Notes under the pieces: model-generated
Seen by the model: the letters and a program-made list of their open reading frames with translations, nothing else
Database searches by the model: none
Told to the model about the DNA's origin: nothing
In this document: in pieces, positions 62,686 through 63,258 of the stretch
How positions within the stretch are numbered: the stretch's first letter is position 1
How the letters are laid out: every line of letters starts with the position of its first letter
DNA from: Prochlorococcus sp. AG-402-M15
GTDB lineage: Bacteria; Cyanobacteriota; Cyanobacteriia; PCC-6307; Cyanobiaceae
NCBI GenBank assembly: GCA_003216615.1
Contig: QCIP01000008.1
Coordinates: forward strand, 42,369-106,368
Direction of reading: 5' to 3'
Length of the DNA: 64,000 bases
Program-made: the position numbers and the translations under genes

Positions 62686-63258
62686 TTACTCTGCATCTTT
62701 TTTGATAAGAGGCGTTTTTCTAGGGCTTAAAAACATAATCATGTTCCTCCCTTCTCTTTTTGGCTTTTGTTGAACTTCTGACTGCTCTTCTAAATCATTA
62801 GCCATTTTTAAAAGGAGCGTTTCGGCTAAATTTGAGTGTTGAATTTCTCTACCTCTAAAAATTACAGTGCATTTGACTTTATCTCCCGATTTTAAAAATT
62901 TAGTAGCTTGGCCTATCCGCACGTCATAATCATGCTTGTCAATTTTGTACCTCATTTTTACTTCTTTTACTTCTGTTTGATGCGATTTTTTTCTTGCTTC
63001 TTTTGCTTTCTTTTCTTGTTCAAATTTATATTTTCCATAATCCATGATTCTACAAACCGGAGGATTTGCTTTTTCGCTTACCAAAACTAAATCAAGTTCT
63101 CTCTGAGAGGCTATTTCTAATGCTTTCAATCAATCTATTACTCCTAATTGTTTTCCATCTGAATCAACAACTCTTAATTGAGGATATTTTATTCTCTCAT
63201 TAATATTTGGGAGCTCTCTAACAGGAGCGCGGCGGTCAAAGCGTGGGCGTGGTGGCAT
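62686..63258 (-). CDS. infC: Translation initiation factor IF-3 with in-frame TGA at codon 43
   Basis: The full frame from ATG 63258 gives 190 residues, beginning MPPRPRFDRRAPVRELPN and including the IF-3 NTD (YPQLRVVDSDGKQLGVID), linker helix and CTD (VKCTVIFRGREIQHSNLAETLL). Codon 43 is TGA (63132-63130) where relatives have Arg; the next codon, TTG, could serve as a start for a 147-residue product lacking most of the NTD, with AGGAG 11 bases before it. IF-3 is essential, so readthrough, reinitiation, a variant or a sequence error are all possible. Upstream neighbour is miaA. Confidence 0.85.
63130..63132 (-). other. infC: In-frame TGA codon within infC
   Basis: TGA replaces the expected arginine codon in the GVID-(R)-LKALEIA segment; frame and family match continue on both sides. 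One base substitution (AGA to TGA) is sufficient to explain it. Confidence 0.9.

What the first reader, a model, noticed from the sequence alone, without database searches (positions are those of the whole stretch)
62686..63258. Essential infC carries an in-frame TGA at codon 43
Seen directly: from ATG 63258 the frame encodes the normal picocyanobacterial IF-3 start, then ...GVID, then TGA (63132-63130), then LKALEIA and an intact IF-3 to its stop. Arginine is expected at the TGA. TGA ends several other genes here (pabB, queC, valS, asd), so it is not reassigned genome-wide. Options are a sequencing error, a new nonsense allele, readthrough, or reinitiation at the adjacent TTG (AGGAG lies 11 bases before it), giving IF-3 lacking most of its N-terminal domain. 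A shortened or regulated IF-3 would be unusual; infC is a known site of start-codon autoregulation in other bacteria.
Basis: partly seen in the sequence, partly recalled or inferred. Interest (0 to 1): 0.75.

Follow-up and report, generated by a model that had tools for sequence, protein, structure and literature searches.

The report
Stray stop codon in infC
A single base change puts a stop codon inside the gene for translation factor IF-3 in this marine cyanobacterium's draft genome; none of the matching genes seen in its relatives has it, and it is most likely a sequencing or assembly error rather than a new way of making the protein.

Summary
infC (63258 to 62686, minus strand) has an in-frame TGA at codon 43 (63132-63130), it is the only infC in the assembly, and the rest of the frame is intact. 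Recoding is not supported. Of 266 genomes of the genus, 219 match IF-3 and only this one has a stop inside the match; codon 43 is Arg in all 87 distinct relative sequences read. RF2 is present, TGA is a normal stop here, and none of 37 tRNAs found has a UCA anticodon. The change is one A-to-T substitution, 868 bases from a contig end, beside a gap of about 2.9 kb that removes the essential gene gyrB. Two private nonsense codons turned up in 635 checked orthologs; the published mismatch rate of Prochlorococcus single-cell assemblies would predict about 1.8. Likeliest verdict: an error of a draft, probably single-cell, assembly. A real stop-start allele (TGA directly before TTG, AGGAG 11 bases upstream) making an IF-3 without most of its N-terminal domain is not excluded: both private stops stand directly before a start-type codon, no clear frameshift errors were seen, and one metagenomic IF-3 has Trp at residue 43 that may be TGA read with table 4. 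Read mapping would decide.

The parts
62686..63258 (-). infC frame (translation initiation factor IF-3), interrupted by one in-frame stop
   Evidence: single copy; the 190-aa IF-3 of relative G006 (P0001) matches TIGR00168 and both IF3 Pfam domains
63130..63132 (-). in-frame TGA, codon 43; Arg in all 87 distinct relatives read; the changed base is 63132
63127..63129 (-). TTG directly after the TGA, possible reinitiation start (Leu44 in an intact gene)
   Evidence: TTG here in 17 of 87 distinct relatives
63141..63145 (-). AGGAG, possible Shine-Dalgarno-like site 11 bases before the TTG; coding sequence in relatives
   Evidence: present in this stretch in 13 of 87 distinct relatives, with TTG in 2 of 87
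62686..63129 (-). 147-aa frame downstream of the stop: C-terminal domain whole, 44 of 70 positions of the N-terminal-domain profile
63312..64000 (-). 3' part of miaA (IPP transferase), cut by the contig end that coincides with window position 64000

Best explanation
The TGA is a single A-to-T change found in this genome alone, and it is most likely an error introduced while a draft, probably single-cell, genome was amplified, sequenced or assembled, so that the living cell would carry Arg at codon 43 and make an ordinary IF-3. Shown: the change is private, the rest of the gene shows no decay, it lies 868 bases from a contig end beside an assembly gap that swallows gyrB, and the number of private nonsense codons found is about what the published mismatch rate of such assemblies predicts. 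Inferred: that this genome is a single-cell assembly, and that the base is wrong rather than mutated.
For: Private: 219 of 266 genus genomes match and only this one has a stop inside; Arg in 87 of 87 distinct relatives read. No decay: against G006, apart from codon 43 and the choice of final stop, only codon 189 of the 36 differing codons changes the protein. Position: contig C8 ends at window 64000; 868 bases to the end; the neighbouring contig C10 resumes after a gap of about 2.9 kb that in G006 holds gyrB (named); gyrB is absent here and present in 3 of 3 relatives. Five of nine contig ends checked break in sequence that aligns to G006 to within 6 bases of the end. Rate: 2 clear internal nonsense codons in 635 orthologs, 210,610 aligned residues; 5.0 mismatches per 100 kbp in the published single-cell workflow (PMC6122165 section 9) times a 5.6% stop-making fraction predicts 1.76.
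Against: The same workflow's 3.0 indels per 100 kbp would predict about 19 indels in the same sequence, and I saw no clear frameshift, though the method found 47 of 60 planted deletions. The 2.8 kb around infC is not noisy: 2 unique bases here against mean 6.4 and median 4 in 97 relatives, some of them more distant. Both private stops stand directly before a start-type codon (3.3% expected each, 0.1% for both, noticed afterwards). P0079 may be a second TGA at the same codon. That the genome is single-cell is inferred, not recorded.
Confidence: 0.65

Rival explanations
1. A real, very young nonsense allele that the cell would survive by termination-reinitiation: ribosomes end at TGA and restart at the adjacent TTG helped by AGGAG, making a 147-residue IF-3 with linker and C-terminal domain but only part of the N-terminal domain. 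Because IF3 depresses reinitiation in E. coli, output would limit itself.
For: TGA-TTG adjacency and AGGAG; the pair AGGAG plus TTG is rare in relatives (2 of 87) yet present here; both private stops of this genome stand directly before a start-type codon; no clear frameshifts and no excess of odd bases nearby. Literature: the isolated C-terminal domain does all IF3 jobs in vitro with about 100-fold weaker 30S binding (PMC4611024, passages); reinitiation favours short stop-start distances and an SD and falls with excess IF3 (PMC2268962, abstract, passages, section 16). P0079 and P0008 may be similar alleles.
Against: IF3 is essential, and an E. coli infC disruption lacking the first 153 nucleotides is kept alive by plasmid infC (PMC6147165, passages). 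The spacing of 11 bases is longer than the 5-9 given for E. coli in PMC2268962, and its IF3 effect was for reinitiation without an SD. No stop in 218 other matching genomes. None of the 120 listed of 801 database hits is shorter than 190 aa.
Confidence: 0.2
2. A real nonsense change in the one cell or culture that was sequenced, lethal or nearly so, with no rescue: the record would show a dying or arrested cell.
For: A private change with no decay around it fits a mutation of the last generations; a single amplified cell need not be viable (inference).
Against: A random mutation of the last generations is far rarer than an amplification error (inference); nothing tested here favours it.
Confidence: 0.08
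3. Readthrough of UGA, probably by tRNA-Trp, gives full-length IF-3 with Trp43.
For: The frame is intact to its end; one database IF-3 has Trp at residue 43 (P0079), so Trp there may be tolerated.
Against: No tRNA with a UCA anticodon among 37 found at 39 places; tRNA-Sec matches all under the cut-off, the best (46.9 against 47 bits) being the tRNA-Leu(UAA) gene; RF2 present; no RNA structure beyond chance around the TGA, z 0.54; not conserved.
Confidence: 0.05
4. UGA is reassigned to a sense codon in this organism.
For: None beyond the in-frame TGA itself.
Against: TGA ends 97 of 623 non-overlapping ORFs of at least 150 aa in the 888 kb examined; prfB present; among 635 orthologs the only other clear internal stop is a TAA.
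Confidence: 0.01

Closest known systems
Residual base errors in Prochlorococcus single-cell assemblies (PMC6122165)
   Same: Isolated substitutions in otherwise intact genes at about 5 per 100 kbp; contigs broken in unique sequence; essential genes missing from gaps.
   Different: The same benchmark reports 3 indels per 100 kbp, and no clear frameshift was seen here; that this genome comes from a single cell is inferred.
Stop-start translational coupling (reinitiation), as in the M13 geneV-geneVII reporter of PMC2268962
   Same: Stop codon next to a start codon, an SD-like site upstream, IF3 known to affect the step.
   Different: Here the stop splits a single essential gene, no relative has it, the start is TTG, the spacing is 11 bases, and no product has been shown.
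infC autoregulation through a non-AUG start codon in E. coli (recalled)
   Same: Same gene; IF3 acting on its own initiation would be the logic.
   Different: infC here starts with ATG; the oddity is an internal stop not conserved in any relative examined.
prfB-type in-frame TGA recoding (recalled)
   Same: An in-frame TGA early in a gene for a translation factor.
   Different: No frame change follows the TGA, and it is absent from 218 of 218 other matching genomes.

Membership tests
Translation initiation factor IF-3 (infC) | Match to TIGR00168 over its curated cut-off | tested here: met
   147-aa part scores 190.3 against a cut-off of 60
Translation initiation factor IF-3 (infC) | Complete N- and C-terminal domains in one open frame | tested here: not met
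   The frame is split by TGA; the downstream part has IF3_C whole and 44 of 70 positions of IF3_N
Programmed stop-codon recoding | The in-frame stop is conserved in relatives | tested here: not met
   0 of 218 other matching genomes of the genus have a stop inside the match; 87 of 87 distinct relatives read have Arg
Programmed stop-codon recoding | RNA structure or dedicated tRNA | tested here: not met
   z-score 0.54 for 151 nt around the TGA; no UCA anticodon among 37 tRNAs; no tRNA-Sec over cut-off
Genome-wide UGA reassignment | TGA no longer ends genes; RF2 lost | tested here: not met
   TGA ends 97 of 623 long ORFs; prfB present
Stop-start translational coupling | Start codon at or next to the stop, with an upstream SD-like site | tested here: met
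   TGA-TTG, AGGAG 11 bases before the TTG; the spacing is long
Stop-start translational coupling | Downstream product made only when the upstream frame is translated | not testable with these tools
   needs a reporter or proteomics
Assembly or amplification error | Change private to one draft assembly | tested here: met
Assembly or amplification error | Lesion rate in line with published error rates | tested here: inconclusive
   Nonsense codons fit (2 seen, 1.76 predicted); frameshifts do not (no clear case, about 19 predicted, 47 of 60 planted ones detected)
Assembly or amplification error | Reads disagree with the assembled base | not testable with these tools
   no reads on hand

The most novel reading that the evidence does not exclude
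A natural stop-start infC allele: TGA at codon 43 directly before TTG, with AGGAG upstream, lets a wild Prochlorococcus live on an IF-3 reduced to its C-terminal domain, linker and part of the N-terminal domain, made by reinitiation that IF-3 itself represses; the allele arises repeatedly at this codon (P0079 from a metagenome as a second case).
Probability: 0.14. Interest if true: 0.65.

Novelty: not a real feature. Interest (0 to 1): 0.16.

Why it matters
If it is an error, the record should be flagged: a gene caller may list a 147-aa 'IF-3' from a TTG start, and an assembly rated 99.7% complete lacks gyrB next door. If it is real, it would be a natural test of whether a free-living cell can do without most of the IF3 N-terminal domain, and a rare case of an essential translation factor made by reinitiation, the very step that the factor is known to depress in E. 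coli.

Tried and rejected
Suppressor tRNA: the Rfam tRNA search of the whole assembly gave 39 places; ARAGORN found tRNA genes at 37 of them, none with a UCA anticodon; the other two are tRNA remnants with UGG-type loops. Selenocysteine: nine tRNA-Sec matches, none over the cut-off. RNA structure around the TGA: none beyond chance. A second infC copy: none.

An error-prone sequence context: both private stops follow TAGAT and change the next base to T, but across the G000/G006 alignment TAGAT sites with T in G000 only number 22 and the reverse 32, so there is no general bias. A dnaK 'stop' in the first comparison (name recalled) was only an upstream extension of the frame. Of 7 orthologs flagged among 635, five were not counted: one with stops only in an N-terminal extension, two with stops in the last 13 residues, a sigma factor (name recalled) with an in-frame variable segment, and a 142-aa ORF of G006 that looks spurious. 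In the reciprocal control 8 of 631 were flagged and I judged none a clear internal nonsense in a conserved gene.

Recurrence in metagenomes: the lists of 120 of 801 hits and 120 of 733 hold 140 distinct proteins. Residue 43 is R in 138 of the 139 placed by the script and W in P0079 (P0139 not placed). P0008 has W at residue 39, and its extra N-terminus ends in N-W-M, the table-4 reading of the AAC-TGA-ATG found before infC in this window and in L040. Both may be in-frame TGAs in table-4 gene calls, but errors in short contigs (650 and 958 bases), ordinary TGG codons and a bias of the search (its first query began at residue 44, so odd residues before it cost nothing) are not excluded; the DNA of those contigs could not be fetched. 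My note that GG tails mean table 25 was wrong: those tails vary (G, R, L, S), like ordinary stop-loss variants.

Literature: ten searches. I saw no report of this allele in their listings, but most hits were seen as titles and abstracts only.

Full report
Observation. The minus-strand frame from ATG 63258 to the stop at 62686 encodes IF-3 and contains one in-frame TGA, codon 43, at 63132-63130. AGGAG lies at 63145-63141, 11 bases before the TTG at 63129-63127, as described. The assembly (1,605,846 bases, 26 contigs, rated 99.7% complete) has a single IF-3 C-terminal-domain match, this one. TGA is an ordinary stop here: it ends 10 of 48 non-overlapping ORFs of at least 150 aa in the window and 97 of 623 in the 888 kb examined. 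RF1 and RF2 are both present.

Is it shared? No. With the IF-3 of relative G006 as query, 219 of 266 genomes of the genus match and only this genome is flagged with a stop inside. One search prints its rows in order of E-value; the 69 matching genomes below its cut were run again by handle, so all 219 were seen. Four of the 218 others do not cover codon 43. In a draw of 400 genomes of the family (68 of the same genus, including this one, so partly the same genomes), 351 match, and no printed row except this one has a stop; not all rows are printed. In fetched DNA, codon 43 is AGA (76), AGG (6), CGA (2), CGG (2) or CGC (1) in 87 distinct relative sequences (15 of 109 loci were missed by my pattern). 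The change from the common AGA is one A-to-T substitution.

How old is it? Against G006, 36 of 191 codons differ. Apart from codon 43 and the choice of final stop, only codon 189 changes the protein. Selection kept the gene intact until very recently, or still does.

The setting points to a draft-assembly problem. The window's right end is the end of contig C8, and the TGA is 868 bases from it. A 6-kb query from G006 matches the end of C8 and, after a gap of about 2.9 kb, the start of contig C10. In G006 the gap holds most of a CrcB-like protein (below the CrcB cut-offs), a 109-aa ORF without a family match, gyrB and the 5' part of miaA. gyrB is not found in this assembly but is found in 3 of 3 relatives searched alongside. 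Of nine contig ends checked, five break in sequence that aligns to G006 to within 6 bases of the end. That is what loss of coverage in a single amplified genome looks like; the origin itself is inferred.

The nonsense rate fits. I compared 1,509 ORFs of G006 with 888 kb of this genome. 635 matched at 75% identity or more, 210,610 aligned residues, and showed two clear internal nonsense codons: infC and a FAD-binding-domain protein on contig C2 (CAA to TAA, codon 263). In the reciprocal control 8 of 631 orthologs were flagged and I judged none a clear internal nonsense in a conserved gene; they are short, weakly similar, near an end, in an N-terminal extension or natural length variants. In this genome's long ORFs 5.6% of random substitutions create a stop. 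The workflow used for published Prochlorococcus single-cell genomes was benchmarked at 5.0 mismatches and 3.0 indels per 100 kbp (PMC6122165, passages and section 9), which predicts 1.76 nonsense codons. Two were seen.

Results against the error reading. About 19 indels would also be predicted, and I saw no clear frameshift, although the method recovers 47 of 60 planted deletions. One split, out-of-frame match belongs to a G006 ORF that looks spurious. In 2.8 kb around infC this genome has 2 bases unique among up to 98 sequences, against a mean of 6.4 and a median of 4 for 97 relatives, some of them more distant, so the neighbourhood is not noisy. Both private stops stand directly before a start-type codon; 3.3% of possible stop-making changes do, so both would be 0.1%. 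That was noticed after the fact and rests on two events. The FAD-domain gene has no stop in any printed row (227 of 266 genomes match; not all rows, and not this genome's own, are printed).

If it were real. The 147-residue product from TTG keeps the C-terminal domain and 44 of 70 positions of the N-terminal profile. Isolated IF3 C-terminal domain does all IF3 jobs in vitro with about 100-fold weaker 30S binding (PMC4611024, passages). In E. coli, reinitiation falls with stop-start distance, rises with an upstream SD, and falls when IF3 is overexpressed, the last tested without an SD (PMC2268962, abstract, passages and section 16). An IF-3 made by reinitiation would then limit itself (inference). 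Against this, IF3 is essential (PMC8266586, passages), and an E. coli infC disruption lacking the first 153 nucleotides needs a plasmid copy (PMC6147165, passages). The AGGAG-TTG pair exists in only 2 of 87 relatives.

Possible recurrence. Database protein P0079 (191 aa, from a 650-base contig) has Trp at residue 43 and ends IKKDDGW. Ten relatives among those read end IKKDDG-TGA followed at once by another stop, so that tail is what a table-4 reading gives. P0079 may therefore be a second TGA at this codon in another lineage, or a TGG codon, or an error in a short contig. P0008 has Trp at residue 39 and also bears a table-4 signature. The first search scored only residues 44 onward, so it did not penalise odd residues before that point, and only about a dozen codons there can turn into TGA in one step (counted by eye); the coincidence at codon 43 is not significant. 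The DNA of these contigs was out of reach.

Verdict. The feature is really in the record. The most likely cause is an error of a draft, probably single-cell, assembly. A stop-start allele with an N-terminally shortened IF-3 is a live minority reading that read mapping would settle.

Noticed in passing
L183:18136-19488 (G000:C2:158136-159488, + strand): A second private nonsense codon: FAD-binding-domain protein with CAA to TAA at codon 263, directly before ATG. No printed relative has a stop there.
   Followed up: partly
right end of window (64000) = end of contig C8: gyrB is not found in this assembly although it is rated 99.7% complete; a gap of about 2.9 kb separates contigs C8 and C10 where G006 has gyrB.
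   Followed up: yes
protein database entries P0008 and P0079: Prochlorococcus IF-3 entries from short contigs that look like table-4 gene calls (Trp at residue 39 or 43; Trp where TGA is usual), so some database proteins may hide in-frame TGAs as Trp.
   Followed up: partly
L154:13686-14951 (G000:C8:36054-37319, - strand): A sigma-factor gene (name recalled) has an in-frame variable segment of about 80 extra residues compared with G006.
   Followed up: no
L152:99-168 and L153:75-131 (G000:C3, near 175398 and 167174): Two tRNA-like remnants about 8 kb apart with nearly the same 3' part and a UGG-type anticodon loop, not accepted by ARAGORN.
   Followed up: no
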